NCBI GenBank assembly: GCA_009760855.2 | Contig: WPIO01000010.1 | Location: 9,211,501 to 9,275,500, forward strand | Direction: 5' to 3' | Length of the DNA: 64,000 nt | Source of the DNA: Cristatella mucedo | Taxonomy: Eukaryota; Bryozoa; Phylactolaemata; Cristatellidae | Shown here: positions 5,551 through 62,205 of the stretch, one piece after another | How positions within the stretch are numbered: position 1 is the first letter of the stretch | Layout of the letters: each line of letters begins with the position of its first letter | The notes under the pieces: generated by a model | The model's input: the letters and a program-made list of their open reading frames with translations, nothing else | Databases searched by the model: none | What the model was told of the DNA's origin: nothing | Translations under genes and position numbers: made by a program

Positions 5551-5552
5551 AT

Positions 5553-5695
5553 GAACCTGTGGTTAAGGTGTTTGCCTCGACCAAGCTCAAGGTGAATATT
5601 TGATGACCAAGCTCGAGCCCGGAGGCATGTGTGAAAAGCCTGAATAGAGATTAAGTTCACTCAGGGCTCTATGCAAATAAGTTATATTATTGTAA
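5553..5695 (+). mobile_element. SINE-A
   Basis: CCTGTGGTTAAGGTGTTTGC head, CAAGCTCGAGCCCGGAGGC in the box B region, then the tail CCTGAATAGAGATTAAGTTC with AGGGCTCTATGC and an ATTATTG end. It is diverged from the consensus. Confidence 0.7.
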
Positions 5696-5699
5696 TATA

Positions 5700-7540
5700 C
5701 GCTTCCCATGTTCAGTAACTTGCCCCGAACGGCTCGACAAAACTTGAGAGTTCGAACGCCTGCCATTGTTGCTTTGGTCGCAAGAAGCTTATGTGACGAC
5801 GCCCTGCGTTTGTGGTCGGTTGGCTGGTATCGCTAGGAGGCATTAAGTAAAAGCAACTTCGACATCGTGACAACCGGCCGATTTGGCACGTCCCCAAGTT
5901 GTGGTCACGTAGAAGCCCAAATCCGAGGGAAATTGGCGAACAAATTGGTGCCAATTTGTTAGGAAAGTGGATAGTGTAAACACAGCATCTGAGTCTTTCT
6001 AGGTCCTGCGCATATACTGAGGAAGCGAGTCAGCAGATCAGTTATTACATGCACAGTTTCAGGAAGTGGAACCTCCTGCAGAGGGATTTGGAACCGCATT
6101 GCCATCCCGAGGATGTTTTCAGTAGAAGGGTATCTGCTTGGATCAACCACGGCTAGTTTACTAGATAGCCTTTAAAGATGCTTTGCAAAGATTATTTTTA
6201 AGACCCTAGAGAAACTTTCAGGGAGGAACCATAAATTGTATCTCTCTGTTGATTAAAACAGCTCCATCAGCTTCAAAATTGGTACCAATTTCATATTTAA
6301 ATGCATCACTGTAGCAGTCGATGACACGTTAGATTGTTCACATTGATTACAGCTAGGCAATGGGTCTTCTGCAGCAAGCCCTGATCCGCGAGTCACTGTC
6401 GCGCTATATAAGTTACTCCTCTTGATTTCACACCGTAATACTGTGATTTATACACTCTTTCGCTAAGAAATTCGTTAGTATGGCTGCGGCCTGACTAAAA
6501 TCCTTGGTATTATCTAGATTTATGACTTCTAGAAGATGTATTCCTAACTAATAGCTTATAGATATTGTTTACCACTACCTCTAGTGCAATTGAAACCAAC
6601 TCATGAGCATAGGCTGGCTCACGCTGGCTTTATCTCAGATGTGCAGGCTGCAGGTAAGTACTTCCATCCTAACCTAGTAAATACAATTTTACAGAAAAGA
6701 GGATTTAGGCAAGCTTGCAACTTTTTTATCATTAACAGTTGTCGGTTTCTAATTCACATCGACTAAATTAAAGTCTTTTCTTTTCAGAAACGTCAGCTCT
6801 AATGATGCTAGCTTACATCACATTCTACCCATGCTCAGTAAATCGCTATACTAGGACTGTCCCTCACGAAGTGAATAACCTGATCAGATACACACTATGC
6901 TGCACCCAAGATGCCTTCACATTGACCTGCCATTCGCTGAATTAAACGAGTTTTATGTATCGGTAATCACCTATTGAGCAGCTTTTAATCAACCAAGACC
7001 TTTTACTTGAATTAAGCGTTGCCCATTAGCGCCAGCCATATATTCGCTCCACATTTCGAATTCATTAGATGAGACCAAAATTCCAATTCATAGTTTTCTT
7101 GGTGAATGAATCACTGCCCGACGATGTTCTCACATTGCCTACACCATGCCTATACTGATATACGTATCTCATGCTTTAATACTGACAATTGTTCGGAACC
7201 TTGTCATTTACTCTCACCAGCCACGAGTGCACAGGAAATTATCTAAGTTGATATCGCTATCTGCATGTGAATGCACGAGCATTCCTTGCCTAATCAATTT
7301 TAGCTGGCTGCCCGGCGCATGGAAGAATAGCTTAGCTTGCAGGACGAATCCCACGTTTATTGCCTTTGCAAATCACACAATGCACTTGACCGTTGCAGCT
7401 CTCTGATCGAGTAATTGCTACATCGAACAGGCCGCAGGCGTGCACACGAGAGCGCTACATTTGAGCAAACAAGAGAAAACCTATAGGAGTTGCTCATTTG
7501 CGCATGCGGAAGCAATCTAAGACGTTACGCTTCCTCGAGA
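5700..7540. other. No recognisable feature
   Basis: Short ORFs (for example minus-strand 5712-5954 and 5959-6150) show no motif and no consistent splice context. No repeat family seen elsewhere in the window was recognised. Confidence 0.4.
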
Positions 7541-7544: not shown

Positions 7545-7735
7545 CTAGTTGAATCCAGCTTCAATTTCGTCAGACGCCTGACCAAGGGCTGGACGTACGG
7601 AAGACTGGTAAGCCACCGGCGCTTTGATTTCCAGCGCCTCTGCGCATGCCTGGGCGCAGGTGTCGTGCAAGCCAATATATCTTGGCAGCGCTGACGAAGC
7701 ATCCGAGTCATTCATCAAGCAGTGGAAAGCGTACA
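7545..7735 (-). CDS. Frizzled-CRD type II membrane protein, gene 2, last exon
   Basis: This is the last coding exon of gene 2. It follows an acceptor (GTTGTAG) at phase 1 and completes a Met codon with the A left by the previous exon. It supplies the last conserved CRD cysteine of the C-x3-C-x6-C block (C-H-L-F-C-D-M-Y-A-F-H-C across the splice), then DTCAQAC and a polar tail ending SDEIEAGFN before TAG at 7545-7547. The x6 spacing restored across the junction independently supports the splice. The tail matches in position the acidic tail of gene 1. No GPI or second membrane segment is visible. Confidence 0.75.
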
Positions 7736-7914
7736 CTACAACGGTTCCAGGCTCCAGCTGTCAAGCGGTACGTGCTTTCATAGCATAAGAGTGCTAGGCG
7801 CATCATGGCAAATAAGTTATAAAGTCAAACTGTAGAACCTATCACTGCACAAACTCGGAATTGCTGTCAGAGTAGAACGACCTATTCAGGAACTCCAACT
7901 TGAATACAGATTAT

Positions 7915-8055
7915 ATGCTTGTTCTGACGGATCTCTCCTCAGCGTCAGGTACTGATCATCTGACAGCCCTCCTTAAGCGCCTGTCATCTCATTTAGGCGT
8001 CACTGGCGCTGTACAGCAATGTTTGAGGTTGAATCACAGAGAAAATTAGAGCATT
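7915..8055 (+). mobile_element. LINE-A reverse-transcriptase fragment in gene 2 intron 3
   Basis: The plus-strand translation gives LTDLSSASGTDHLTALLKRL then SSHLGVTGA. This aligns with the RT block LLDLSAAFDTIDHKVLLERL SSRLG of the better copies at 37.4 and 63.2 kb. It is antisense to gene 2 and decayed. Confidence 0.65.
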
Positions 8056-8579
8056 TTTTAACAAAGGGCATCAGCCATGAGAGGGGCCCCTTAAGTCCAG
8101 GGTATCAAACGCGTAAGCTGCCAGAGGTCCACCTATTTTCACGCTACGTACACTCTTGCTTGATTGACGGAGCAGCTTAAATCTCTTGCAATATGGAATG
8201 CTGTCATTAAATTTGGATGGCAGCTATGTTTTGCAAAGTGGAAACTATAAAAACAACTCACTAGCAATGGAAAAATCTAGTGTTCCTCAGAAATCGGCAG
8301 ACCTATCCTTCAAGATGGGTGTCTCGTGTAGTACCCGCACAAAGTCCGGATGCCCTGTACAGGAAGTGACCTTGCATTTGATAAATTCATTAGTTTGACG
8401 AGATGACCCCTAACTTTCAGATAGGCATTATTCAAAAAATTATGTCATGATACCACAAAAGAGCCGATACTTACATTCGGAATAAAGTCACGTGCACAAG
8501 CATATAAGCTGGGAGGCCTGCGTGTTACCAGGAAGCCGCTGCTATCGTGCAGAGAGACCAGTACGAAAAGAATACTCAC

Positions 8580-8827
8580 TGTCACAGAACAGGTGGCATT
8601 TCTCAGCTTCGATTTGAATTCCGGACTCGCAGGGAGGAGCGATAAAGCTGCACACTCTATCGAGGCCGCCGGTCGTGCAATGCGGAAGCAGCGATGTTAT
8701 AACTCTAGCTGCGTCGTAGAATTGCTGCTGCACATTCTGACTAATCGATGTGTTGGCATAAGGCAGGTTCTTGCAGCTGTCAATGACCATCTCACACATA
8801 GGGCTATCGGCTTTTCTAATCCAGCGT
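8580..8827 (-). CDS. Frizzled-CRD type II membrane protein, gene 2, CRD exon
   Basis: This is the main exon of the extracellular Frizzled-type cysteine-rich domain, which binds Wnt-type lipidated ligands in the known Frizzled, SFRP, corin and MFRP families. It has acceptor TTAATTGCAG, donor GTGAGT, start phase 2 and end phase 1. Seen directly: C-x6-C then LPYANTS (the conserved 'C..LxYxxT' element with an N-glycosylation sequon), SQN and a helix ending LLPH; then C-x8-C-x6-C, then C-x3-C. The C-x6 partner lies in the next exon. These spacings are those of the Frizzled fold. In the assembled 233-residue chain (plus a possible short first exon) the CRD begins at about Cys99. The gene has a close tandem paralogue at 15.3-19.1 kb with identical intron phases. 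Ligand and function are unknown. Confidence 0.85.
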
Positions 8828-8978
8828 CTGCAATTAACAAAAAAGGCAATTTTCAATAGGGGTACTGCACTGCCAGGAACATTAAAGTTCGCCCCTTACG
8901 GCCTGCGAGCACCCTACGGTCGAGATCCTTGATTTGGAGACATGGTTGACGGAAATGAGGTGACTAGGCCAGGCTCAC

Positions 8979-9030
8979 GTCCAAACATTTGGTTGGTATG
9001 CTCGATCTCCTGGTGCAACTCGTGCTGCTG
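8979..9030 (-). CDS. Frizzled-CRD type II membrane protein, gene 2, stalk exon
   Basis: A 52-nt exon between acceptor ACTTCTGCAG and donor GTGAGC. Read in the only frame that links its neighbours, it gives AARVAPGDRAYQPNVW. Start phase 1 and end phase 2 equal those of the stalk exon of gene 1 (17059-17233), although this stalk is far shorter (about 17 versus 58 residues). The two other frames of this small exon are also open, so the call rests on splice sites and phase rather than on content. Confidence 0.6.
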
Positions 9031-9184
9031 CTGCAGAAGTTCAACGGTCCTTGGATGTTCTAGATCTAAGCAGAAGTGAGAAGAGTCAAATTAGCCTTCG
9101 CTTAAGGATTTCATTCGGCTGCTCATTGCTTTCTAGAATGAGCGCGGCATACTCGGTCAGCCTGTGTCATGTAATGCCTGCTTT

Positions 9185-9378
9185 AAATCTGGGTCTCCAT
9201 GCTTTCCAAATTGAAATTCCCCTAGATGACCAAATCAGCTTGACAGCCGCGTCTGCCTACTTCCAGTTGCATGCACTTCCAAAAAATAAAGCCTTCCTAA
9301 ATAAGAATACCACAGCCAAGCCGGTCCACATATTCGCGACATTCCATCTAGACGCCAGTAAGTCAATACGCAGATTTC
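9185..9378 (+). mobile_element. LINE-A fragment in gene 2 intron 1
   Basis: The translation FQIEIPLDDQISLTAASAYF then QLHALPKNKAFLNKNTTAK aligns with FQSDLSLDDHISSTVKSADF QLHNIAKIWACLDKDTTSK of the copy at 63.7 kb. It is in plus orientation, antisense to the host gene. Confidence 0.7.
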
Positions 9379-9506
9379 CCTGCTTCTAGATCAAAAAGCT
9401 TACACTTGATACAAGACTCGGCAGTTAGGCTTGTCTGTCATTATTTCCAACAATAAACTTAATTCAATGCAGGTTCAGTCGCATCTCATGCTTCTGGCGA
9501 TCTTAC

Positions 9507-9717
9507 CGTACTCGTACTTCAAGGCGATTCCGACAACAGCTCCACCAACCACTGTCAGTGCGAGCGCGATGCCCAGCGTTACCCAAACCGGTCGTCTGGC
9601 GTCGCATAGCAGACGTGGCAGGTATTTAATTCGTCGGCCTACCCTGGAGGTCCAGCTCTCGTCCAGTAGGGCCGTTTGAGCCGATGTCGCCTCGAAGGCC
9701 CCCTCAAAGGTCGTATT
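9507..9717 (-). CDS. Frizzled-CRD type II membrane protein, gene 2, transmembrane exon
   Basis: The exon begins after acceptor GCGCCTTAG at phase 0 and ends at donor GTAAGA with phase 1. Its 70 residues include TALLDESW, a basic stretch (GRRIKYL), and one hydrophobic segment VWVTLGIALALTVVGGAVVG at about residues 44-66, then KYEY. Basic residues before the helix and the cysteine-rich domain after it predict a type II (N-in) single-pass membrane protein. It is paralogous to the exon at 18932-19130 (TALLNGSW, VW-T---AL, KY-Y; identical distance from helix to donor). Confidence 0.8.
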
Positions 9718-9900
9718 CTAAGGCGCAAAAAGCATGGCTGACCGCGTGAATGAACTGCCAGCAAACGAACGGCTGCACTGCAGCCGCCACTGCAGACGCC
9801 GAGCAGCACAATTTCCGTGTTCCACTGACACAGCTAGACAATAGCTAGCGATTGCTCTGTTCGCGAGAGCACGTGAGCTAAGATGAACTGCTGCATGCAC

Positions 9901-9912
9901 TTGCATGGCCAT
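9901..9912 (-). CDS. Possible first coding exon of gene 2
   Basis: ATG in a good context (GAAATGG) opens four codons (MAMQ) and stops at a GTGCAT donor, phase 0, which fits the phase-0 start of the transmembrane exon. The donor is weak. The same frame is open upstream for many codons (LEDPAFPNAYAFSAPKYFKK and on), so a longer N-terminus is possible. A very short first coding exon is also seen in the SEA gene at 56.87 kb. Confidence 0.3.
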
Positions 9913-10778
9913 TTCTGCCTCCGCTGTCGAATCTGGCGCCGACGAGGTCGCCGCCCTGTTGTTGTTTCGCGCCTCTACCCACTGAGCCTGAGATGGAGAT
10001 TTTGCGTATTTCTTAAAATATTTTGGTGCAGAGAAAGCGTAAGCATTCGGGAAAGCAGGATCTTCCAAAGGCCACCCACCCACCTCTCCCCGAGAGCGCC
10101 CTCAACAACAGGGTGGTGGATGAATCGGACTCTTTATTTGGCTGTGGGCAGAGCTGGGTGTTGTATGGGTTTTGACCGAACATTGGCCCTGAGTGACGTG
10201 GCCAATCATAGAAATTCTGCACGCGCCTATTCAGATGTTAAAGATCCGACACGTCTTTCAACACGATCCGATGGCGCTCGAGTCCCTTCCCAACCCTCAC
10301 TCCATTGGCTGGGCTCTGACGCATCCTCACTTCGGTTTATATCCGTTGCCCCTGCCAGCTTTGGCAAGCTTTCCCGAGCAAGCAATAGCAGTAAATTACA
10401 TTCCAATCTTGGCACATTTAGACTAGGCTCCTCGGTTTTCGTCGTGAAAGTGGGGCATGTCGGCAGGCCAACTATTCAGCCCTGGTGAAAGTCAGGTTGT
10501 GATCAGCATTAAAAAATTCTTAATTAACCATGTTTGAGCAAGAGATTCATCCAAGCTTCGGGCTGAATGTTAAGTTTCAGTATACGTGCAAGGTATGGCA
10601 TGGTGAAGAGTGGAATACACTAGAAGACGATCGTTTCGAACAATCTTGTCAAACCTTGAAGAAACGTGGGCTCCATGGTGACAGTGTTAACGATGAATGT
10701 GAGTTCTAGGAGCTACGAAGGGTTTACGAAGAGCGTCGCTATATCAGCAGAGAGGCTACCCCAATTAGTACTACCACG
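9913..10778. other. Upstream flank of gene 2; no clear element
   Basis: Moderately GC-rich sequence with overlapping open frames on both strands at 9.9-10.5 kb. It may hold the promoter and 5' exon(s) of gene 2. No convincing core promoter motif was found. Confidence 0.3.
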
Positions 10779-11735
10779 CTGGCTGCATCTGCCCAGACTT
10801 CTATCAAATCAGCTTCATATCTAACACCGGTGCGAGCGCGAAGGATGCATTAAGCAGAGTTGCATACAATCGCTACGTTAGCAAGCACAACAAGTGGGAG
10901 CACCCGGCTGGTTAATGCAAAGCTCTATGAATTCAGCTTGAAAGCTAGTACAGCAGTTGTATTCGCCCAGGCTGCTTTGTGCAGAGCTCTTCGCAATCGG
11001 AAGAGAAGCTAGCGCAACAAGTGGGTGATCGAAGGCTGCATTAAGCAGAGTTGCACACAATCGCTACGTTAGCTAGCACAACAAGTGGGAGCGCCCGGCT
11101 AGTTAATGCTGAGCTCTATGAATTCAGCTTGAAGACTAGTACACAAGCTGTGCGCGCGAAGGCTGCATTAAGCAGAGCTCTGTGAAATCGGAAGAGAAGC
11201 TAGCGCAACTAGTGGGTGAGCGAAGGCTGCATTAAGCAGAGTTGCACATAATCGCTACGTTAGCTAGCACAACAAGTGGGAGCGCCCGGCTAGTTAATGC
11301 TGAGCTCTATGAATTCAGCTTGAAGACTAGTACAACAGCTGTGCGCGCGAAGGCTGCATTAAGCAGAGCTCTGTGAAATCGGAAGAGAAGCTAGCTCAAC
11401 AAGTGGATGAGCGAAGGCTGCATTAAGCAGAGTTGCATGCAATCACTGCGTTAGATAGAGCAACACATTGGAGCTCCCGGCTGGTTTATGCAGATTATAT
11501 GAATTCAGCTGGAAGTCTCGTACAATAGCTGTTCTCGCGAAGGCTGCATTAAGCAGAGCTCCGTAAAATCGGAAGAGCCGCTAGCTCAGCAAGTGGGAGG
11601 GCGAATGCTGCATTATGCAGAGCTCCGTGAAATCGGCAGGGCAGCTGGCTCGCAGTAAGTGGAAGCTCGAAGGCTGCATTAAGCAGAGCTCTGTGAAATC
11701 ACTAGGGAGGCTAGTTAGACGAGCGGTAGCTTAGG
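10779..11735. repeat. Tandem satellite array with 64-bp monomers in a 191-bp higher-order unit
   Basis: AGGCTGCATTAAGCAGAG recurs at 10842 (one mismatch), 11033, 11224 and 11415, exactly 191 bp apart. Each 191-bp unit holds three related monomers of 63, 64 and 64 bp: type A with GTTGCACACAATCGCTACG, type B with GAGCTCTATGAATTCAGC, and type C with GAGCTCTGTGAAATCGG. A partial B monomer precedes the array. The 3' end carries single C-type monomers at 11541, 11605 and 11671 (spacing 64-66 bp) with more mismatches. Confidence 0.92.
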
Positions 11736-13924
11736 GCCGTCGAGCACTACAATGAGCGGGCGCTGTCGAGAGAGCCAGTGGCTCGTGGATCGCGTCGTAG
11801 CTAAGTGCGCCGCCGAGCGCTCGCAGAGAATAGGGCCTGGCTCAGCAACAACAATCCCTATAGCAGCCGACTGGCTCCAAAGTCGCGCCTGCTACTCCAC
11901 GAGTCCTCTTCATAACGCGCGACTGCGCGAAACCGGCTTTAGAGCGATGCGATTAGGGCCGCTTTGAATGGTGATCGGATACGGCCCTCCTCGCTGCTGA
12001 AAGCCTCGGCTGTACCTGCAGCAGCCGCAGCAGCCGATCTGACTAAATGGAGCCGTCCAGGCGTGAATATTCTGCTTCGAAGCCGCTTTGCGCCGGCGCC
12101 GTCAGCGACCACAGCGGCATCAAGCTAGCAACGTCAGCTGGAACAAACGTATCGATGGCCAGAGTTCGCAGAAGCTTTTGAAATCAATTCATGTATTCCG
12201 CAAGAACGATAATAACGTCTGCTTTTGCGTGCTTGTTTATTGGTTTCTCTGGTGAATGTAGACATTTAGACGTTTGTGAGCTCACTGTGCCGATTGCCTT
12301 GCCAAAAGCAATATCCTCACCAAATCTGGTGCCTACACCAGTGGTCTTTCTAAGTAAAATCTCAGGCAAGGACAGCTAAACATCTTTTTTCTGGGAGAGA
12401 ACCCTGCCATTACAGTACGACATAGGAGGGTCCACCATTACCAAGCCCAGGCTATGGCCATTTTCAACAATATATTTAGAACGGCAGTGCTTACGACCTG
12501 ATTGACGAAACGGCAAGGTAGCACAGTGAGAGTATTGACTTTAGCATAGCCGTTGACGATCTAAAGTAGATGCTACGCAGAATTATCAGTACAAAGTCGA
12601 CAAACAAAAGAATGGTTAGGAAACTTCTGATACCCTATTGCCATTTGACAGTGAGCAAGCTAGCACAATTTCCATCGAAATAACTCTTACCATATCGCTT
12701 GACATATCGTTGTTGTAGTGAGACATCATCTTCTGTCTGCAGCTCAGTCTTCAGCACAGCCACCGGTCCTCAGCACAGCTCAGGGAGCAGAAAGCAGCAG
12801 CTTCCTGAGCGAGGTCAGCAATTATATAGGCCAGAGGTCTTTTATTATGCAAATTAGACGCTCGGTTAAATTCTTTCAGGAAATCTCTCCTATCGACACC
12901 GCTCACCCGTTGCCCACATCCCAATTTAATTTAAATAATATATTACGCTAAGTTACTCAATTAGTCCAACGCTGTGTATCGGCTCTAAAGCGCCTGGGTC
13001 AGTTCGCCGGAAGTACTTTTCGCCGAGCAGCTTGCCTTTTAAGGAATGAAGCATCTGTTGCCTTGGAGAATGGCTGTGACGCCCAAACGCAGCAACCAGC
13101 CGTTCATAACATCGCTACCTTGCTTACGACCCACTAGTTGTGCGAATAGTGACTGCTAAAATAATGTTATACACGAAGCATGCCTACGGGCGCTAATATA
13201 GTAGCCTGTCCTATACAGTAGTCTCCGGCTAAGGCTTTAGGCTTTGACCAATGCTTCCGCTCCTCCAAATCTTCCTGCAAACTTTCCTCCGGCCACCCTT
13301 TCGATGGTCGGCCAGGTCCCGCCTGAATCGGCTTTTGGGTCCAACTTTCGCATAAATTTACAAGCGAGCTGCAAACAAACAAAATGCGTTTCAAAAATCG
13401 GCTTCAATATTCACACAAATAAGGATCATTAAGAAAAGCGATATGCCCCGTCGCGGTCCTGTATCCCTGCGGCCCTGGCGTCCTTTGTAGTGACCAGCTG
13501 CACATTCCCCCCCCCAGCGCGCAGCCCGGATCCTCTTGCCAGTGTGCTGGTGGTATTTTATCGACTGGAGGGATAACGTACTTCCAGCAAGTCTACTGGC
13601 TGTCTCTTCAAGTTTATCCTAACAGTCAAACGTTCGCAGCAGTTTTAGTCAGAATCGGCTACACATCAGTCTAGATATCATTCGCGTCTCCTGATTTTTA
13701 CTAGTAAGCAAACAGTTTCGTCATTATCAAGGTTAGGCAGCACGAAGCGCCCGAGTCGTGCGATATTCGGCTCAGTAGTGCACCACGGGCTTTGAGTGCG
13801 GCAGTTCAGCTCCGCCTCGATATTTCAATGAGAGCTGTACGCGCAATGGTTGCCACTGGCTACCCGTGCCTCTCTACGGCCGTCGAATAGACTGCACTAC
13901 GCCAAGGGAAATTACTGCACATAG
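11736..13924. other. No gene recognised
   Basis: Positions 11750-12130 are GC-rich with a 71-codon plus-strand ORF lacking motifs. Positions 12700-12950 hold a Ser/Gln/Ala-rich ORF of 77 codons. Neither has supporting splice context. A run of C lies at about 13508. Confidence 0.4.
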
Positions 13925-14157
13925 TCAGGTAGGGGCGTCTTCGTCGGCGTCGGCTGCGCGTATCGACGCAGCGTCTGCGACTTGCCGGCCGCGCTCCGAG
14001 GTTCGGCTTTGTCGGAAATTTCCATGCGTCGGGTCGTTCCGAGTGCTGAAAGTTTTGTCTGATGACTCCAGCTCATTAGCCGCCGGTGAGCACTCGTTGC
14101 GGCAATAAGTCCATTCTGTCAGGCACCCCACTGCCGTACGCCGTAAAAAAGTGGCAA
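13925..14157 (-). CDS. Third C-terminal exon of the Frizzled-CRD family (alternative or orphan)
   Basis: The minus-strand open frame runs from acceptor ACATGTGCAG (first base 14157), or an internal acceptor at 14130, to a stop at 13925. Both acceptors give phase 1, as in the last exons of genes 1 and 2. It contains VGCLTEWTYCRNECSPAANE; the W-x2-C-x3-C element resembles NWRRCKASC of gene 1 and DTCAQAC of gene 2. A polar tail follows, ending AADADEDAPT. It lies 1.1 kb downstream of the last exon of gene 1, so it could be an alternative last exon of gene 1, or the remains of a third paralogue. The residue equivalent to the C-x6-C partner is not matched. Confidence 0.45.
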
Positions 14158-15261
14158 CTGCACATGTTAAGTCTCCAATTGCAACTGAGGTGGAAACTTC
14201 TGTGAACCCACATTAATACAAAACCATCGTTAAAAAGCATTTCGACGGCGCACTTCGGATAATGCGCTATAAGGCAGCGAAGACATTTAGTCTAGGAGAC
14301 CGGAAGTCCTACTGCTTCCGTTTCAGTAACTCTCCAACTATTTTGCCGCACAGTTTAAAACTCTCATTAGTTGGAAGTGTACATAAGCCCTGATGCATAA
14401 TGCAATACGTAAATAAGTGTACGTATTGATATATAGTACGTTCTAACGTAGGCGGTTGCCACACCAAGGGTGTAGGGGAGAGGCAGTTTGGATGCAGCCC
14501 TACTTAAAAAAGAAAGGTACGTGCCTGAGAATGCTCTAGTCAAGAGCTGGGCTGGAAGCGTTAAATGTACAGCCTGATTCTCAGACTTGCAGTTTTAACT
14601 GCAATATACGTCGTCGTGTAGCGTAACCTAGCGTAACATACCTCCGTCAGTCACTCCATAAAGCCACATGGACGGAGTACTTATTACGCTGGAGAGTTTT
14701 CCAAAGCTCACTCAAAGCCTAAGCGCAGTGTTTCGGGGGCCTTTTCGTCACGTGCTCACGAAAACACCTGTTTGATTATGACTATTGTTCATTATTTGGT
14801 TTCGCATGCTGAAACTGTGCTTGCTATTGCCACTTATCAGCTCGTATAGTGTTTCCAGCTAAGGTGTACTGCCTAGTAAGCGGTTCAGTATCCTTCACCG
14901 CCATAAAATTGTGTGGTATCATTCTTCTTAAAACTGAGAAGCAGCCATGTGATTGAGTACTTACCAGTTTGTTGCCAATGCAGCTGAGTGGGTTAAAAGA
15001 AACACAGCCAACGTTTCATCGCCCAAAATTTATTCTACGATCAATTTCGCGTCGAAAAGACATAAGAAGTAGCCAAACTCAAAACAGCAGAAATGAAGCA
15101 CGACGGTTGCGGATGACGGAGCCATTCGCATAGCGAGTGCACTATCGGAGCTGGTGCTCTAGCTCACGTGCTGGCTCACTATTGAACCAAAAAACCGAAC
15201 ACCTAATACCTAAGAGCTACATTGGGCGGACAGGCAGGAGGCCAAGCGGCGAGCACTGCTG

Positions 15262-15455
15262 CTAGATCTTAGTGCTGCCATCGCCGGAGCCCGAGCCCGA
15301 TGCTCTAAGACCATCCTCCTCGTCGTCAATGCTGTAGTTGGCATTTTCCCAGTCGATGCTCTGGTGGAAGCAGCTCGCTTTGCACCGCCTCCAATTGCGA
15401 GCCGGAAGCACCCCTCCTTCCGGCAGCAAGGCGACCAGGCAGCCCAGACGGACGA
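15262..15455 (-). CDS. Frizzled-CRD type II membrane protein, gene 1, last exon
   Basis: Acceptor GCGTTTCAG, phase 1. It completes the CRD: with the preceding exon it restores C-L-S-E-C-E-L-V-R-L-G-C (C-x3-C-x6-C), then gives NWRRCKASCFHQ. The C-terminal tail is acidic and glycine/serine-rich (SIDDEEDGLRASGSGSGDGS) and ends TKI before TAG at 15262-15264. The tail has no hydrophobic anchor. Codons 214-276 of the assembled 276-residue partial chain. Confidence 0.82.
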
Positions 15456-15612
15456 CTGAAACGCAGCGCGAGCGCCCCGGATCTCAATCAGCGTTCAAAA
15501 GCCCACTATTTCGCTGCTCGCCGACCAGCGTCTAGCGGCAGCGCTGCCATGCTGCAGTGGCTCGAAGCCGGTAATGCGGTCGGCCTGTTATTTGCATGGC
15601 GCCACAACTCAC

Positions 15613-15875
15613 GCTCGCACTCGGATAGGCACTGCTCCTTCTTCATCCACAAGATATCTCTGGGTCCGCTGGCGCACACTGGAGCCTCAGTGAGGCATAT
15701 GAGTTTCAGCTTCTCGAGGTGGCATTCGAGGGACCGGCTGGGAATCGAGTGAAACTCACTGCGGGTGCAGCCGCGCAGCTGCGACTTGGCAGTGCTCGAG
15801 GTGTGCTGGTAGTGTACGAACCTTTTACACTGGGCTATAACATCGTGACACATTTCGACGCTTCGAATTTGGCGC
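15613..15875 (-). CDS. Frizzled-CRD type II membrane protein, gene 1, CRD exon
   Basis: Acceptor TTATTCTTTAG, donor GTGAGT, start phase 2 and end phase 1, exactly as in gene 2. The peptide begins RQIRSVEMC and shows C-x6-C (CHDVIAQC), a Tyr-x2-Thr element (YQHT), then C-x8-C-x6-C (CHLEKLKLIC, then LTEAPVC) and C-x3-C (CLSEC). The CRD spans about Cys134 to Cys241 of the partial chain. Odd points: an extra cysteine (LRGC) in the middle, and a less canonical 'C..LxYxxT' element than gene 2, so the fold may be modified. The domain is predicted to be extracellular. Known Frizzled CRDs bind Wnts or other lipids; whether this one does is unknown. Confidence 0.85.
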
Positions 15876-16154
15876 CTAAAGAATAATACAAAAACAGCAA
15901 TTAACTGTATTACCAGATGCGGTGGTGGAGGTGATCGCAAACCTTACAAATCAAGGTATGCAGTATGTATGACTTGAAACATCTCATCAACATCAACGCA
16001 GGAAAATTGAGCTTTGCCTCTAGAATTAGAGACTAACGAGCAACACCGTCGCCCTCAGAATAACTTCCGTTAGAAAAAATTGCATGCTAAGAGAGTCTGG
16101 GCTAGGGAAATTTCACGGCAGACTAATGCAGGGCCTATTGAGAAGGTGCTACTA

Positions 16155-16230
16155 CAACCACTATTACTACTAATAAATTGGTATAGCCCCCTCAGAGAAC
16201 TAAAGCTCTCCCTATAATATGTACAGATGC
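16155..16230 (-). mobile_element. LINE-A/SINE-A 3' tail fragment in gene 1 intron 2
   Basis: A minus-strand tail hairpin with ATT repeats: ATTACTACTAATAAATTGGT precedes ATAGCCCCCTCAGAGAACT and AAAGCTCTCCC. Confidence 0.65.
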
Positions 16231-16322
16231 TGTAGAGAAGGCATGGCCAAATAATTTGTGTTGCAATTCAAAATGTGATAGGGCATAACATCGTTGGTTG
16301 TGGCATAAACAGGGTTTGTTCA

Positions 16323-16498
16323 GCCGTGATGGTCCACTAAGTAAAGGGTCTGCTCTTCACGACCAAGGTCCTGAGGTTGTGGGTACGAATCATGCGTTGG
16401 GCGATCATTGGTTGCCACTGCCAGTGGTGGTGATTGCCTTTAAGGTTCTTCTGCCTCTATACAAAAGAGGCTGTTAAATCTGCTTGTATGTTTTAACA
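16323..16498 (+). mobile_element. SINE-B in gene 1 intron 2
   Basis: GCCGTGATGGTCCACTAAGT head, AGGTTGTGGGTACGAATC box B region, GTGGTGATTGCCTTTAAGG body and AGAGGCTGTTAAATCTGC end. Antisense to gene 1. Confidence 0.75.
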
Positions 16499-17058
16499 TG
16501 TAGATATAGTTAGAAGTGGCAGGCGCAGTGGCAGCACGAACAAGCACACAAAAGACCTAGCTAATGCAATAAGCCATGACATCTCCAACTGATAAGATAG
16601 GGTATCAACAAACTCACCCGTTTATGTCTAGCTATGACGCCACTACTCAAAGTTTAGCCTGATGGCAGCCTTATGACCTAGTTTAAAGACCCATTTAGCA
16701 AAGCTCGTGCAGTCGGCTGGTCTGGAAAAAAATGTCTCTAGCCTCCAAAGGCTGGCTGTGCTCTGGAGCTTAGCTGACAGGCAGTCATTATATTTGACTC
16801 TCTCCACGACCCCCGCTTTACAATCAGCATTGCCAGTCCTGTAGTCCCCCTTTGAGCGATGACAAGCTTTTTTTGCCCCCAAAGCCGGGTGGCTATCTTA
16901 GGAGTCGGTTAGCCTTCTCCTGCTTGGTAGCCTACTAGCTTTGTCACCGTGGGTTTTTCGGCTCGCCACATGCGTTATCTGGAAGATATTCTAATGCCAC
17001 TAAACCATCATCATGAAAAAGACAAGGCACGATTCGCGAACCGGTCGTGATAGCTCAC

Positions 17059-17233
17059 CTGGACGTCATGGTCCCATTGGCCATCAGCTCTTCGTTAAAA
17101 GTAGCCCGGAAGTCAGTCGGCACTTGCTCAGCAGAGGCAACCAATCCGTTATCCTCATATCCATTGAGCTGTCCAGGTCTCTTGAAGTCCATAGCGTTAT
17201 GTTCAATGATGTGTTCATCCATTTTATCCGAAT
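17059..17233 (-). CDS. Frizzled-CRD type II membrane protein, gene 1, stalk exon
   Basis: Acceptor CTTCGCGCGCAG, donor GTGAGC, start phase 1 and end phase 2. It encodes about 58 polar residues with no cysteines (SDKMDEHIIEHNAMDFKRPG and on to NEELMANGTMTSR), including an NGT sequon. It links the transmembrane helix to the CRD, so it is read as the extracellular stalk. Skipping it would shift the frame of the transmembrane exon relative to the CRD exon. Gene 2 has a 17-residue equivalent. Confidence 0.75.
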
Positions 17234-17898
17234 CTGCGCGCGAAGACGAGAGCTCAAACACGGCCAATCGACAGAGAGATCAAACTTCTTAACGGCGTCC
17301 AGCCGGCAGTGACTGCGGCTCAAAAAGCTTTACCAATCGATGCGCTCGCAGTTACAGCTGCTCTCCTCAATGCCTTGAAATTTTAAAGCTCGTTGTGATG
17401 AAGAAGGCACTAACAATGATCTCGTTATCAGAATAGGCACCGGTAAGAAATCCAACAATGCTCAACCTAATTGAAACTACACTAAAAGCGTACTAGAATA
17501 AGCAGCCAGTAATCAATGCCTGACCAAGACCACCGCTGGAGAGCTAAATAGCTTTGATTAATCGTGTCATGACGAAAGTTTGCGGTTTCTTACGATGGTT
17601 GTGACAAACTAAGTGAATAAATAAATGTTTGAGTCTCCGTCTCGCTAGCTCAAAATTATTAAATTGGTACTTCGGGATTGCTAAGCTGCAGTGACGCATA
17701 TCGAACACAATCACAGCTGATGTCATATTTCGCAATCACTGGATAACTTCATTAGCCTAGTGAAAACGAATTAACGAGAACAGTCTTACTAACAAAGCCT
17801 TGATTAATTCCATTGCAAAGAAGCAAAGGTGAAGGACAATGGAGAAGAGAATGGCAGAAATATTAGCACGAGAGTGAACATTATTGTCATGAAAGGCA

Positions 17899-18400
17899 GA
17901 ACTGTACCCAGGCTAGGTGCGGTTGGCTAGGACAGGATGGCTGTAATGTGGTACGGGTCACCGACTAGGCCGTGTTGTGGCTAGTGTATTTCGAGTTCCC
18001 TCTGTAGTGTGTTCGTGACCCCCTCCCCCGTGAGCAGGCGTCTTTCGGAGGAAGCTCTTCGGGAGGGCCACAAACACGTTACAGGATGAACTCGGAATAT
18101 ACAAGCAACCACAACGAGCGTTCTATCCAGCTCCGCTCGGGCCTTGGGTACTCGTCGCCTCCGCGTGCGTGGCTGCATCGCCGGAGCACGACTTCACCCA
18201 TCCAGGTGCATAACTCGGCGAGGCCGGGAGCCTCCAACACTGTGACTTACTCAGCCAACTTCCCTTACCCAAGAGCCCTGGTGACCTCTCATCACTGCAC
18301 ATCTGGCAATGCCCATAGGTCAGACTCGGCCTAGCCGGTGACCAGTACCACATTACAGCCATCCTGTCCTAGCCAACCGAACCTGGCCTGGGTACAGAAC
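17899..18400. mobile_element. Inverted-repeat (MITE-like) element with ~74-bp arms in gene 1 intron 1
   Basis: The left arm 17899-17972 (GAACTGTACCCAGGCTAGG to CCGACTAGGCCG) is the reverse complement of the right arm 18327-18400 (CGGCCTAGCCGGTGACCAG to CCTGGGTACAGAAC) with only a few mismatches. The 354-bp interior is GC-rich and has no transposase-like ORF. Termini resemble CTGTACCCAGGC. No clear target-site duplication was seen, so family assignment is open. Confidence 0.85.
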
Positions 18401-18931
18401 TATGAATTGTAGAACTGAGTTTCACAATTAAATACATACTCACAAGCATCTGCCACTAATAACCTTTAGATGATAGTAAGAAACGTGCGAATGATTTCGC
18501 TATGAGTACACTAGGGCACGATACGCAATGAGGCTAATAGTGCTGTAGCAGCTCAATTATGCATGAAAGATCTGTAATTCGGAGTACTTTGATTTAGTGT
18601 TGGTCAGAGCGCACTTCGGCTTTCACATGCATGCTTAACCAATAGCCTCATTACCCGAGCAACAGACAGAAGGAAAAGTGGGAATGATTGGTGAACTAGG
18701 AGTTTGGCTTGTCGTGTTTGCAATCCCACAAGTACATAGTATAACTCTAAAGAAAGCTGGGGATATAGTATGGCAGTTATTAAGCTATGTACATCATTAA
18801 TATATCAATTCTAGGGAGACGGGATAGAACGAATCAACTCTAACCCGTCGTATGGCGAGCAAATGCCATAAAGTAAGACAAATCAAGTATCAATGAGTCA
18901 TTTCAAAGCCAACAACAAACCAACACCTTAC

Positions 18932-19130
18932 CGTAGTGGTACTTCACCATGTACGTAGCAATGAATCCAGCAATAAGTGAGAAAAAGAGCGCTATCATAA
19001 AAGTCATCCAGACGGTTCGGCCGTAATTTTGGAACATGTACGCCAACCACGTCATCTTCCGCCGGATCGTCAATTTCCAGCTCCCATTCAGTAAAGCAGT
19101 TCTCGCCGAGGCGTTCACCAATACAGAGTT
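18932..19130 (-). CDS. Frizzled-CRD type II membrane protein, gene 1, transmembrane exon
   Basis: Acceptor CCGTTCTAG at phase 0, donor GTAAGG at phase 1. Residues 1-66 of the partial chain: NASARTALLNGSW, basic KLTIRRK, then the hydrophobic segment VWMTFMIALFFSLIAGFIAT (about 40-62) and VKYHY. A type II orientation is inferred. It is paralogous to 9507-9717. A second frame through this exon is also open, but only this frame links to the stalk exon and matches gene 2. The first coding exon lies further upstream (above 19.13 kb) and was not identified. Confidence 0.8.
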
Positions 19131-22749: not shown

Positions 22750-24034
22750 GCTTCAACTCAGCTTGAAAGCTATGCAAAACGTCGGTAGGAAGGGAATCGT
22801 CACATAAGAAAAAGTAAAGCGAGTAAACACTATCTGTAGCACAACAAAAATACACAAAGAAGGAATTAGAATCAGCACAAACATTATGTGTTTAGAGCAA
22901 AAGCAGTCTGCGATAAAAAGGCTTGGTGACAGCAGCAGCAGCAGCAGCAACATGACTCGCTTCTTAGCATGGACATTCGAATTCTTACCACCATATCAAT
23001 TGAACGGCCTGGAGCGTTCGCCATCTTGAGGTTACAACACTGGTTTGCCGCTCTCAGCAACTCGCAGGAGGAAGCAGCTATCCTGGTAAGCGACAGCTTT
23101 TATATGGGCTGCAGATTCTATTATTATGCTAATTAGTCGAGCAAGTCTAATGCATCTCAATTTTGCTCAAGATCTGGGCACGAACGCTCCTGTACACGTC
23201 TACGAATCCTTTCAAAATTACAATTTCACTTAATATTGCTAAGATTTTAAAGGTCCTAAACTGGATCACGTTAAAGTTACCAAGGAATAGGCTTCTGGGC
23301 AACGCCTTCGCTTTCCGGGTGGGGTCGTTGCCCCGGATGTTCTACCTGGTGCTGCCCGACCTTTAGCGGCGACTCCCGAGCTTCACCAGACAGGGTTGTT
23401 GTGGTTTAGCAACTTAACCGGATCGCTAATAGCCCACTCAATGGCCCGTTAGTCTTCGCGTGCTTCGAATTCGTTCCCCGAGCTTCGATGTGGCAGCCCT
23501 CGTGCCGTATGGTCTCCGACTCTGGGACGATGTTTCGATATGGTGAGGGTAGGAACTAACGAGAGGGGTAAAGAGTCTAGCCACTACTTCCTGCTACACT
23601 TTCCTGTACTGTCAAGAATTGCTGCTTTGCAAGAACTCGGTAGCCACAAGCCCAATATGAGCAAATTAAAATAGAAGAGCAGAGATAAGGGTATCGAAGG
23701 CTCTCGACCGCCAGGTCCCGCCAACTCGTTGGACGGCGGGTGGAAGGGAGTGGAGCCGCCATGCCAAGAGCCGCCGCGTTGCGTAGGCGACGGCATTTCG
23801 GCTTACAGCATTACGCAATGTTCCATGCCTAAGGAAAGACCGAAGATAGAATAAGAATAGAATAGAATAGAATGTTAATGTGAGCGTCTAATAGTATAAA
23901 GAACGAGCTGTAACGGCTTTTGCACCACGGTTTTCATTAGTCCGAAAACCCAGTAATAACAAAGTCACTTTGAAATGATGAGTCCGAATGAGTCTTCCTT
24001 CTGTCATGTTTCTGTTCTGCTTCAGTCTTTGGTT
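22750..24034. other. No gene recognised
   Basis: Contains a short (CAG)6-like tract at about 22932-22950 and a (AATAG)n-like run at about 23848-23872. No domain-bearing ORF. Confidence 0.4.
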
Positions 24035-56866: not shown

Positions 56867-56890
56867 ATGGCCACGTTCGCCGGCGAAGTG
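56867..56890 (+). CDS. SEA-domain type II membrane protein, first coding exon
   Basis: ATG in strong context (GCGATGGCC) opens MATFAGEV and is followed at once by a consensus donor GTAAGT, phase 0. The next exon (59051) starts at phase 0. It lies at the 3' edge of a CpG island, as expected for a first exon. The eight-residue exon is too short to prove by content. The donor and the phase match are the evidence. Confidence 0.55.
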
Positions 56891-57326
56891 GTAAGTAAAG
56901 CGCGCCGCGCGGCGCTCTGCGAAACTGCCGAGCCTGCCAGGCACGCTGGCCGTCCCGTGTGCGGCGGGACGCGTGCGCGTTTCGGAAGCCGGCCAGCCCG
57001 CCGGCCGACACGCTACTGTAGCCGCTCGCAACTGCCGCATTTCACCGCCCCGAATTTAATTCGAAATCGGTCTCGCGCGACGCGGAGACAGAGCTTCCGA
57101 ACGTCAATCTGCCTTCCGTCGGCTTTTCCTAGGCGCGTACTGCGGTCTCGTGACCGCCCGACGGCTTTATGGCGACGGATTGCCGCCGGCGTGGCACGGT
57201 CGCATGGGTGGGGGCGACGCACCAACCCCCCCCCACGCACTGCCGAGCAAAATTGAACTGACTTTGAATCGGCGAGCGCTTCGCCACCACTACCGTACCG
57301 GGGTTGCGAAGAACAGCCGCCTCCCG

Positions 57327-57340
57327 GGGGGGGGGGTGCT
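57327..57340. repeat. G homopolymer in intron 1
   Basis: A run of G after CTCCC. A similar run lies at about 58930. Both are potential length-variable sites. Confidence 0.7.
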
Positions 57341-57827
57341 TCGGCTTCACCCGTCCGCAGCGCCGCTTCCGAGCGAGCGGCGCGCAAGCGCGTGGGTGCG
57401 AGGCCCTTGCCACCCCGTCCTCCACTCGGGCAGCCCTTCGCCATTTCATTCCGCGAGGCGGCGCTGGCGCGGTCGGCCGGCGTTGGGTCGGACAGTTTGG
57501 TTAGCAGTGTGCGTTTTCCAAAGCTCAACGCTACCTCGCCGCACCGAGAAACGCTCGCCATCGGCTCATCTAGAGGACGAATCGTACGAGGGCGCAACCG
57601 GCGGCCGGTAGGATGTCGGCGCCGCGTAAAGCCGGCGCGGGCAGCCCGCCGAAGTCTGCGACGGACGACCGTCGACGCGACCGGCTCTCGGCAGCAACGA
57701 CGTCGCCCGTCGCAGGGCGCGCTCGCGAACTAGACGGAGAGTGGACGCTAATTAAAGCCTTACTATTTATTGCATGGATCGTAGGCGGCGGCGGGAGGGG
57801 GCAGGTAGCAACCCACCCGGCCTCGGT

Positions 57828-57947
<120 letters not shown>

Positions 57948-58408
57948 CAGTCCACCGGCCGGATTAATCTGCTTACGGCAGTTGCTTGTATACCCGAGCA
58001 TGACCGTAGCCGCGATATGCGCAGCACCGGAACCAGCGCCGGCCAGGCGAGGCCCGAGAGCGGCCGCGGCGGCGATTGCCGCGGACTCATCGGTGAGCGC
58101 GTCTCTTAGTCGTCCGGGGAGTTAGGCGGCAGAGCAGCGGCCGCCGCGACCAGTAACGTCGGCGTCGCGAAGCCGCCTGTCGAGGTTCGCGGCGCCGCAA
58201 TCGCGCGCGCCGGTCCCGGAAAGCGATTCGATTCTACTAGAGGGCGCGATACCGGCTGGCTCTTCTTAGCCCAGCGTGAAGGTGCTCGCACTGGACGACC
58301 GAGGCGGCACGCTTGAGTCCTGCAGCTGGCAATTTCTCGCTGCCTCGTGCGAGCGGGAGTGATAGCCGCCGCGGCTTGGTGCTTTTCGGGCGGCCGCATC
58401 AACTATAT

Positions 58409-58549
58409 AGTAATTCAGTTGTATAGCACCCTAAAAGAACTTGATCTTTATTCAGGCGCTTCACATACGCCACGGGGCTCGATCCCACGACCTCGGCCAG
58501 ACCTTGGCCAGGGCGAGAACATTAACCTCTGGGTGAAACAGGCTGATTA
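58409..58549 (-). mobile_element. SINE-A, minus orientation, in SEA gene intron 1
   Basis: TATAGCACCCTAAAAGAACT TGATCTTTATTCAGGCGCTT, then GGGGCTCGATCCCACGACCT (box B complement) and ACATTAACCTCTGGGTGAAA (box A complement). Confidence 0.85.
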
Positions 58550-59050: not shown

Positions 59051-59246
59051 GTGTACGCCAACTTTGACAATCCGAAATCGGAGGACGAAGCCGCCGCGTC
59101 CGTCGCCGCGGGCCTTCGGCCGAGTGCCAGATGCATCGCAGCCTACGCGGCCGCGCTGTGGCGACGGCTGCGCGACAATCCTCGCGCCCAGCTGGCAGTG
59201 CTTCTCTCGCTCATCGCCCTGGTGGCAGTCGCTGCGGCGCTTGCCG
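59051..59246 (+). CDS. SEA-domain type II membrane protein, transmembrane exon
   Basis: Acceptor CATTCGCCCAG, donor GTGAGT, start phase 0 and end phase 1. It encodes residues 9-73: an acidic start ([16 protein letters not shown]), a region with basic residues (WRRLRDNPR), and the helix [18 protein letters not shown] at about 56-74. Charge distribution and the downstream SEA domain predict N-in type II topology. The sequence upstream in frame has a stop at about 58986 and no ATG, so an upstream exon is required. Confidence 0.75.
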
Positions 59247-60125: not shown

Positions 60126-60126
<1 letters not shown>

Positions 60127-60199
<73 letters not shown>

Positions 60200-60765: not shown

Positions 60766-61263
60766 AACTGTAGCATACTCCTCTTGATAATATATGAAAG
60801 TTACAAATGCCGATATCGATTGTTGAGAAAGCATCTAGTAGGTTCTTTCTCTTGTTATATCTGAACAGTGTCCTTTGCCCTACCTATCTGCACGGGGCAG
60901 AGCTTTTTTCTATCTATTTTTTCTTGAGCCCTCTCACTTAACAAAACCTACATCTATGACGTAAAAGATCTTTTATTAGTAATTCAAGCAAAAATCTATA
61001 AAAACATCTCCCTTTCCTATTTTGAGTGAGAGACCAATATTACATCAGGCTCCAAGCTTTTATGAAGGTTTTGAACTGCCAGTAACGCTGTGTGATGGTT
61101 ACTTAAGCAAAGATTTACTGAACAGAAATAGACTAAGTGAGGAGCCGATGCAATTTTTTTAGTTTATCACAGCATTATCGACAAATTGAATTGTTCAGCT
61201 AGCACCAATTTAATGCCTAAATGTGGCTACGCAAGACAATATGCTGGTATCTCTCTTTTTTAG

Positions 61264-61439
61264 TATACAGCGCGAATCGACACCCTGCTGCCAGCGCCGA
61301 TCAAATCGAGGATGAAACTCCTGGCGATGCAGTTAAAGTCGTCGTAAGCCTTACTTTTTCTAGTCTCGCTTACGACGCGGAGCTCGAGATAAAGTCGACC
61401 AAGACGTACTCAAAACTGAGAAACAGTTTGTACCAGCAG
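61264..61439 (+). CDS. SEA-domain type II membrane protein, SEA exon 1
   Basis: Acceptor TCTCTCTTTTTTAG, donor GTACTA, phase 1 to phase 0. Residues 74-132: a short acidic linker (SADQIEDETPGD), then the start of the SEA fold, VVVSLTFSSLAYDAELEIKS followed by TYSKLRNSLYQQ. The pattern (beta strand with hydrophobic V/L/F, 'Y..EL', then 'S..Y..L...L') is that of SEA domains. These sit in the ectodomains of mucins and type II transmembrane serine proteases and often mediate association or autoproteolysis. Confidence 0.8.
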
Positions 61440-61517
61440 GTACTAAGGCTTTAAGTGGTCTTTATGTCCAGGTAAATTAAATCCTGTCAGGTTTTTACTC
61501 AGTGCTATCTTTTCCAG

Positions 61518-61585
61518 ATGAGACGCACATTTAACTCGTCTGCGTATTCTCGGGAGCAATGGCTGATATCACTGGCAGACTTCCG
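61518..61585 (+). CDS. SEA-domain type II membrane protein, SEA exon 2
   Basis: Acceptor CTTTTCCAG, donor GTAAGA, phase 0 to phase 2. Residues 133-154: RRTFNSSAYSREQWLISLAD F, with an N-glycosylation sequon (NSS). It continues the SEA fold. Introns 3 (78 bp) and 4 (88 bp) are short, unlike introns 1 and 2 (about 2 kb). Confidence 0.8.
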
Positions 61586-61673
61586 GTAAGAGCTCACTCA
61601 GCAGTTATCTAGCGAGATTACGTCGTTTACTGTGTATCACTGTCATGCTTTCCTGAGACTTTCGCACTTGTAG

Positions 61674-61843
61674 CAACCGTAGTGGCAGAGTGGCTGCCTT
61701 GTTCGTGGTCTACGCTCCATCGACAGCCCGCGTCAAGAAACTCTCCCAAGACTTTATGAGCCTGCTTCGTCAGAGTATCATTGGTGGCGGCCGGAAGTTC
61801 GGCATTTACCCAGCAACCGAGGACGGTCTAGAGCAGATCAGCG
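61674..61843 (+). CDS. SEA-domain type II membrane protein, SEA exon 3
   Basis: Acceptor CACTTGTAG, donor GTAAGC, phase 2 to phase 1. Residues 155-211: RNRSGRVAALFVVYAPSTAR followed by VKKLSQDFMSLLRQSI, which completes the SEA core (strand 'V..LFVVY', then helix). At the usual autoproteolysis site G-S-V-V-V the sequence is G-R-V-A-A, so the cleaving serine is absent and the domain is predicted not to self-cleave. What follows (protease, LDLa, Frizzled or nothing) lies beyond the secure exons. Confidence 0.8.
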
Positions 61844-62205
61844 GTAAGCTCAGGCATGGGACAGGGCTTAGCATCCGCCCTTTGCCGGGAAATAATTCTA
61901 GCTGAAATTTTAATTGGTTCAAGGGCTCTTTCTTTAGCTTTTGTAACCAGCCTTCAATCGAAGACTTGCTTGTCGCTTGGCGATCGAGGCGGTCTGTGGC
62001 CTGCACCTGATTCCCTGCTTTGGCCGAGAGTGAGATGTTGATCTTACCCGACTTGGCTCGTGGGCTCGAGCTTTGAGGGATATGCAAAGCCCGCAGGACA
62101 GGGATCGTGCTCGGTTGGGGCGCACCCACAGATAAGTCGGATTCTAGCTCTTTTTTTTTTATTTGTTTTTCGATTCCGGAGCTTCTGTATTCTTGGCATT
62201 TGCAG

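What the first reader, a model, noticed from the sequence alone, without database searches (positions are those of the whole stretch)
7545..19130. Tandem pair of genes for small type II membrane proteins with one Frizzled-type CRD
Seen: two minus-strand genes with the same exon plan (transmembrane, stalk, CRD, last exon) and the same intron phases (0, 1, 2, 1). Both show C-x6-C, C-x8-C-x6-C and C-x3-C-x6-C; the last spacing is restored only after splicing, which independently confirms the exon model. Gene 2 also has LPYANTS at the conserved 'C..LxYxxT' place. Known: Frizzled CRDs occur in Frizzled receptors, SFRPs, ROR, MuSK, corin, MFRP and others, and type II proteins with a CRD (corin, MFRP) are large and multidomain. 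Inferred: a protein of about 235-280 residues consisting of helix, stalk and a single CRD with an acidic tail is an unusual minimal architecture. It could act as a membrane-tethered decoy or co-receptor for Wnt-like ligands.
Basis: partly seen in the sequence, partly recalled or inferred. Interest (0 to 1): 0.88.

Follow-up and report, generated by a model that had tools for sequence, protein, structure and literature searches.

The report
Paired small membrane Frizzled-like CRD genes
Two neighbouring animal genes each appear to encode a short, single-pass membrane protein carrying one degenerate Frizzled-type binding domain, and they sit beside a much larger membrane gene built from many such domains, which suggests they are pared-down relatives of it.

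Summary
Two minus-strand genes (window 23024-15262 and 12729-7545) each splice from five exons, phases 0,1,2,1, into 288- and 278-residue proteins: one helix (type II by hydropathy and charge), a stalk and one Frizzled-type cysteine-rich domain (CRD). The genes are paralogues (BLASTP E=3e-16). The CRDs are very divergent: Pfam Fz matches gene 2 only, below its cut-off, and gene 1 not at all. The assignment rests on cysteine spacing, an intron inside the domain, and similarity to CRDs next door. The main addition is the setting: a plus-strand gene starts at 56867 and runs past the window's end, with a helix, a SEA domain, seven CRDs (the seventh on an overlapping contig) and nine LDLa repeats. 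All nine CRDs of the locus have a GT donor at the same codon position; three Frizzled/SFRP-like CRDs of this genome do not. The small genes are thus most likely reduced members of a corin/MFRP-like class, not cut-down Frizzleds. A membrane-tethered, possibly shed, ligand-binding role is the best guess; Wnt binding is untested.

The parts
22989..23024 (-). gene 1 exon 1: start codon, MANAPGRSIDMV; ends phase 0.
   Evidence: GT donor, TATA-like CATATAAAAG upstream
18932..19130 (-). gene 1 exon 2: cytosolic segment and transmembrane helix; ends phase 1
   Evidence: hydropathy maximum residues 52-70; net charge +2 before, -2 after
17059..17233 (-). gene 1 exon 3: extracellular stalk; ends phase 2
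15613..15875 (-). gene 1 exon 4: CRD, first seven framework cysteines plus one extra; ends phase 1
15262..15455 (-). gene 1 exon 5: last three CRD cysteines, acidic tail and stop codon
   Evidence: AATAAA at 15034
12691..12729 (-). gene 2 exon 1: start codon, MMSHYNNDMSSDM; ends phase 0.
   Evidence: TATA-like CTATATAA upstream
9507..9717 (-). gene 2 exon 2: cytosolic segment and transmembrane helix; ends phase 1
   Evidence: hydropathy maximum residues 61-79; net charge +2 before, -2 after
8918..9065 (-). gene 2 exon 3: stalk; ends phase 2 (donor GTAGGG chosen because the better-looking GTGAGC donor upstream would break the frame of the CRD exon)
   Evidence: choice of donor is inference
8580..8827 (-). 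gene 2 exon 4: CRD, first seven cysteines, LPYANTS; ends phase 1
7545..7735 (-). gene 2 exon 5: last three CRD cysteines, tail, stop (acceptor has a weak pyrimidine tract; another acceptor just upstream would give a short tail without the last cysteines)
   Evidence: AATAAA at 7361
56867..56890 (+). gene 3 exon 1: MATFAGEV, ends phase 0; same short-start-exon plan as genes 1 and 2
   Evidence: read by eye
59051..59246 (+). gene 3 transmembrane exon, ends phase 1; sequence not significantly similar to the exons of genes 1 and 2
   Evidence: (by eye)
61263..61845 (+). gene 3 stalk and SEA-domain exons; CRDs and LDLa repeats follow beyond the window end
   Evidence: Pfam SEA E=1.5e-7, 31.9 bits, cut-off 26.4, on hand-joined exons; placed by tblastn

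Best explanation
Genes 1 and 2 are paralogous genes, intact by sequence, for short type II membrane proteins: a cytosolic segment with a shared SAxTALLxxSW motif, one helix, a variable stalk, one divergent Frizzled-type CRD and a short tail. They belong to a local family of type II CRD proteins that includes the large neighbouring SEA-CRD-LDLa gene, and most likely arose by duplication of the membrane-proximal part of such a gene (or share a short ancestor with it), followed by a second duplication of the small gene. Likely mechanism (inferred): the CRD is displayed at the cell surface as a one-domain ligand-binding head, and perhaps released by cleavage at the RxIR motif just before its first cysteine. 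It would act as a tethered or shed partner or competitor for the ligand of the larger protein. Shown: gene structure in the DNA, topology signals, cysteine framework, paralogy, shared donor position. Inferred: expression, surface display, cleavage, ligand.
For: Two complete five-exon frames with the same phases. Genes 1 and 2 are paralogues: BLASTP E=3e-16, 61 of 230 aligned columns identical. In 245 aligned codons, identity is 0.40, 0.52 and 0.36 at positions 1, 2 and 3, as for protein-coding sequence. The cysteine signature is absent from 20 of 20 simulations. In 9 of 9 CRDs of the locus (gene 1, gene 2, gene 3 A-G) a GT donor lies one base into the second codon after the seventh cysteine; for 6 of the 9 (not A, C, G) I also found the next exon that restores C-x6-C; in 3 of 3 Frizzled/SFRP-like CRDs examined from the same genome the frame runs on. 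A CRD-exon profile from genes 1 and 2 picks up gene 3 CRDs at E=7e-4 and 0.0042 among 4,947 ORFs. The reverse search with gene 3 CRD-A picks up the gene 2 CRD at E=0.004. In the tree of 12 CRDs, genes 1 and 2 join CRD-A, the most membrane-proximal CRD, with support 0.82. RQIR and RWIR lie at the same place before the CRD.
Against: Pfam Fz is below its cut-off for gene 2 and absent for gene 1; genes 1 and 2 are not among the 20 matches of the genome scan with PF01392. Spacing of the first pair (x6) and last pair (x3) differs from the genome's own Frizzleds (x7; x9 and x12). Profile-profile comparison with two clear gene 3 CRDs was weak (probability 2.8%, E=0.016). The PDB profile search gave Frizzled-10 first but only at E=0.41, with talin at 0.77. 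The transmembrane exon of gene 3 is not similar to those of genes 1 and 2 (150 and 181 of 500 shuffles reach the score), so descent from the gene 3 N-terminus is not shown. Gene 1's CRD is no better than chance against gene 3 CRD-B (143/200), CRD-G (30/200) and one Frizzled (41/200), and gene 2's CRD is similar to all three Frizzled/SFRP-like CRDs (0/200 each). RxxR is a weak motif. Tree branches are very long.
Confidence: 0.6

Rival explanations
1. The small proteins are cut-down Frizzled receptors or SFRPs, tethered Wnt decoys by descent from a Wnt receptor gene.
For: Gene 2's CRD is similar to the genome's Frizzled/SFRP-like CRDs (0 of 200 shuffles reach the score for each of three) and has LPYANTS at the conserved place.
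Against: The donor inside the CRD is shared by 9 of 9 CRDs of the locus and absent from the 3 Frizzled/SFRP-like CRDs examined; the tree places genes 1 and 2 with gene 3 CRD-A. Pfam shows no NTR or seven-helix domain in the models, which have one hydrophobic stretch each.
Confidence: 0.15
2. The genes are decaying fragments of a larger type II CRD gene, with no function of their own.
For: A degenerate partial copy of gene 3 (SEA and CRD-B pieces, with a stop in the aligned part) lies on contig C177, so the family does leave broken copies; a tandem repeat array lies in intron 1 of gene 2.
Against: Both frames are open over five exons with GT..AG splice sites, TATA-like boxes and AATAAA signals, second codon positions are the most conserved, and ten framework cysteines are kept in both at 27% identity.
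Confidence: 0.15
3. The exon models miss downstream domain exons, and the real proteins are larger.
For: Gene models were read by eye; the acceptor of gene 2 exon 5 and the donor of exon 3 are not strong.
Against: Both paralogues end in a stop soon after the CRD with AATAAA about 180 and 230 bases on; profiles of the CRD and helix exons gave no hit under E=0.2 in the 100 kb to the left.
Confidence: 0.1

Closest known systems
Corin (type II transmembrane serine protease)
   Same: Type II anchor with Fz CRD outside. [quoted passage not shown]
   Different: No LDLa, SRCR or protease domain in genes 1 and 2. Gene 3 is closer (LDLa and several CRDs), but no protease motif was seen on the plus strand of the 20 kb fetched from C177 around and after CRD-G.
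MFRP (membrane frizzled-related protein)
   Same: Type II protein with one CRD and no protease (domain facts recalled).
   Different: MFRP has CUB and LDLa domains (recalled); genes 1 and 2 have neither by Pfam.
SFRPs and Frizzled receptors
   Same: Cysteine spacing C-x8-C-x6-C and C-x3-C-x6-C.
   Different: First pair x6 instead of x7 and last pair x3; no NTR and no seven-helix domain; a donor cuts the CRD where three Frizzled/SFRP-like CRDs of this genome run on.
Gene 3 of this locus (SEA-CRD-LDLa type II protein)
   Same: Short start exon, phase 0 then phase 1, hydrophobic helix with positive charge before it, CRDs with the same internal donor.
   Different: Seven CRDs, nine LDLa stretches and a SEA domain; its helix exon does not align to those of genes 1 and 2 beyond chance.

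Membership tests
Frizzled CRD (Pfam PF01392) | Match above the curated score | tested here: not met
   Gene 2: 17.8 bits as whole protein, 21.9 as domain, cut-off 32.1; gene 1: no match. So not filed as PF01392, only as a divergent relative
Frizzled CRD (Pfam PF01392) | Ten cysteines with inner spacing x8, x6, x3, x6 | tested here: met
   Ten framework cysteines in both, one extra in gene 1; first and last pair spacing (x6, x3) differ from the genome's Frizzleds
Frizzled CRD (Pfam PF01392) | CRD fold | tested here: inconclusive
   Only the contiguous CRD exon could be folded; pLDDT 53; 0 Foldseek matches at E<=0.001
Corin | Type II anchor | tested here: met
   Hydropathy and charge only
Corin | LDLa repeats, SRCR and trypsin-like domain | tested here: not met
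   No such Pfam match in genes 1 or 2
MFRP | CUB and LDLa domains | tested here: not met
   No such Pfam match in genes 1 or 2
SFRP | Secreted CRD plus NTR domain | tested here: not met
   Internal helix with type II charge pattern, no NTR match
Frizzled receptor | Seven-helix domain after the CRD | tested here: not met
   One hydrophobic stretch per protein, N-terminal of the CRD
Wnt-binding proteins | Binds Wnt | not testable with these tools
   Needs an assay

The most novel reading that the evidence does not exclude
A dedicated family of one-CRD, type II (possibly sheddable) surface proteins evolved from a large SEA-CRD-LDLa membrane protein and now acts as a tethered competitor or partner for that protein's ligand: a membrane-anchored counterpart of SFRPs that arose independently of Frizzleds.
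Probability: 0.25. Interest if true: 0.65.

Novelty: new variant of a known kind. Interest (0 to 1): 0.45.

Why it matters
If expressed, these would be very small membrane-anchored Frizzled-type CRD proteins, sitting next to a much larger relative. That gives a natural pair for asking what a single CRD does on a type II anchor, and how SFRP-like modulators can arise outside the Frizzled lineage. The shared donor inside the CRD is a simple marker for tracing that lineage in other animals.

Tried and rejected
Frizzled descent was considered and set lower because of the intron and the tree. Pseudogene fragments were considered and set lower because of open frames and codon-position conservation. 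A fold test was tried on the contiguous CRD exon only, because the tool takes sequence read letter for letter from the window; result inconclusive, no Frizzled chain listed. Profile-profile comparison of genes 1 and 2 with two gene 3 CRDs was weak. PDB searches with the single full sequences found nothing relevant. Rfam: 0 matches at gathering score in the window. One stretch against the plasmid and one against the phage collection: no match, uninformative for an animal gene. Literature: eight searches, of which the top listings only were seen; PMC1761132 alone was opened, and only passages were read. No title or abstract start in those listings describes a type II protein made of a single CRD; that is not proof that none is in print.

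Dropped or incomplete rows: three of 11 pattern hits are poly-Cys repeats and one is stray; gene 3 CRDs E and G do not show the x8 spacing and so are not among the 11. In one search gene 3 CRDs A, C and G lack their last exon, which I did not find; only 3 of the nine strong uninterrupted Fz genes were compared.
Full report
What was checked. The window is G000:C11:9211501-9275500, about 27 kb from the right end of a 9.3 Mb contig of a 572 Mb genome. The genome has several Frizzled-type genes, so it is an animal; I did not place it further.

Gene models. Reading the minus strand and joining exons by their splice sites gives two complete frames. Gene 1: 23024-22989, 19130-18932, 17233-17059, 15875-15613, 15455-15262, 288 residues. 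Gene 2: 12729-12691, 9717-9507, 9065-8918, 8827-8580, 7735-7545, 278 residues. Both have phases 0,1,2,1. 8 of 8 introns begin with GT and end with AG; TATA-like boxes lie before both first exons, and one AATAAA was found in the 350 or so bases after each stop. Two choices in gene 2 are weaker than the rest: the donor of exon 3 and the acceptor of exon 5. Each was chosen because it keeps the frame or the cysteine spacing and matches gene 1. There are no transcripts.

Protein anatomy. Each protein has one hydrophobic stretch (maximum at gene 1 residues 52-70, gene 2 61-79), with net charge +2 in the 15 residues before it and -2 in the 15 after, as expected for a type II anchor. The CRD has ten framework cysteines in both, with one extra in gene 1. 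An R-x-I-R sequence (RQIR, RWIR) lies at the same place a few residues before the first cysteine in both; a cleavage site there is a guess. The cytosolic segment is well conserved between the two (shuffle test 0 of 500).

Relationship of the two genes. BLASTP gives E=3e-16 with 61 of 230 columns identical. Over 245 aligned codons, second positions are the most alike (0.52), then first (0.40), then third (0.36). That is the pattern of coding sequence under constraint, though at this distance it is a rough measure.

Is it a Frizzled-type CRD? Pfam alone does not settle it: gene 2 matches Fz at E=0.0049 (17.8 bits) as a whole protein and 21.9 bits as a domain, under the cut-off of 32.1; gene 1 has no Fz match. 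The genome scan with PF01392 lists 20 matches (14 over the cut-off), and genes 1 and 2 are not among them. A two-sequence profile ranks Frizzled-10 first in the PDB but only at E=0.41. The fold prediction of the CRD exon is poor (pLDDT 53) and its fold searches are inconclusive. The first cysteine pair is spaced x6 and the last x3, unlike the two Frizzleds read here (x7; x9 and x12). In favour: the inner cysteine signature, found 11 times in 190,987 bp (7 real CRDs, 3 poly-Cys repeats, 1 stray) and 0 times in 20 simulations.

The neighbour. A profile of the CRD exons of genes 1 and 2 hit ORFs just right of the window at E=7e-4 and 0.0042 among 4,947 ORFs. These belong to a plus-strand gene, gene 3, that starts in the window. 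By eye its start exon is 56867-56890 (MATFAGEV, phase 0) and its helix exon 59051-59246 (phase 1); a SEA domain follows (Pfam E=1.5e-7, 31.9 bits, cut-off 26.4). Beyond the window come CRDs A-F and nine LDLa stretches. Of seven CRDs A-G, four pass the Pfam cut-off (B, D, E, F; F was hand-joined across two frames) and three do not (A, C, G). Contig C177 matches this end of C11 at 98.5 and 99.8% identity over the 3.2 kb compared; it carries the CRD-E exons and, about 12 kb on, a seventh CRD, G. That G belongs to gene 3 is inferred; the stretch between was not fully fetched. No protease motif was seen on the plus strand of the 20 kb of C177 fetched there (54001-74000). In the second half lies a partial, broken second copy of gene 3 (SEA and CRD-B pieces).

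The shared donor. In 9 of 9 CRDs of the locus (gene 1, gene 2, gene 3 A-G) a GT donor follows one base into the second codon after the seventh cysteine; for gene 1, gene 2, B, D, E and F the next exon was found too. In the 3 Frizzled/SFRP-like CRDs examined (L029, L030, L031) the frame continues there. A tree of 12 CRDs joins genes 1 and 2 (0.67), then CRD-A of gene 3 (0.82); branches are long. Pairwise shuffle tests agree only in part. Gene 1: CRDs A, C and D 0 of 200, E 1, F 9, G 30, B 143, and the three Frizzled/SFRP-like CRDs 41, 4 and 2. Gene 2: A, B and G 0, F 1, D 7, C 9, E 9, and the three Frizzled/SFRP-like CRDs 0, 0, 0. So gene 2 is also plainly similar to Frizzled CRDs, and the intron is the better guide to descent. 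Searching with CRD-A finds the gene 2 CRD at E=0.004. Against direct descent from the gene 3 N-terminus: the helix exons do not align beyond chance (150 and 181 of 500 shuffles).

How common. Whole-genome searches with the gene 1 and gene 2 proteins found only these two loci (5 matches each), with a tool that scores only the best candidates. The exon profiles gave no hit under E=0.2 in 100 kb to the left. The protein database for homologues was switched off, so whether other species have such genes is open.

How it most likely works. Shown: two open gene models, a type II anchor by composition, one divergent CRD, kinship with the multi-CRD gene next door. Inferred: the CRD is shown on the cell surface, perhaps released by cleavage before its first cysteine, and binds a lipid or protein ligand shared with the larger protein. 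A Wnt decoy is possible but untested, and known corin-type CRDs are not mainly Wnt receptors (recalled).

Verdict. A real pair of genes with an unusual short architecture, a new variant of a known kind.

Noticed in passing
window 56867-64000 and L021-L023, L036: A large plus-strand gene with type II helix, SEA domain, seven CRDs (the seventh by inference, on contig C177) and nine LDLa stretches; no protease motif seen in the 20 kb of C177 scanned.
   Followed up: partly
L037 about 4500-6500 (G000:C177): A partial second copy of the large gene (SEA and CRD-B pieces) with a stop in the aligned part, so the locus has duplicated more than once.
   Followed up: partly
G000:C11 about 9294900-9295160 against C177:46008-46214: The sixth CRD of the large gene changes reading frame on C11, but an open frame of 116 residues holds the match on C177: an allele difference or an assembly error.
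   Followed up: no
window 10838-11622: A satellite-like array of a 191-base unit, about four copies, inside intron 1 of gene 2.
   Followed up: no
window 36266-37871 and 62504-63920: Fragments that look like LINE reverse transcriptase (by eye, not scanned).
   Followed up: no
G000:C88, C665 (two), C419, C653, C177, C409, C105, C111: Nine strong Fz matches in frames without stops elsewhere in the genome; three were read and look like two Frizzleds and one SFRP-like gene.
   Followed up: partly
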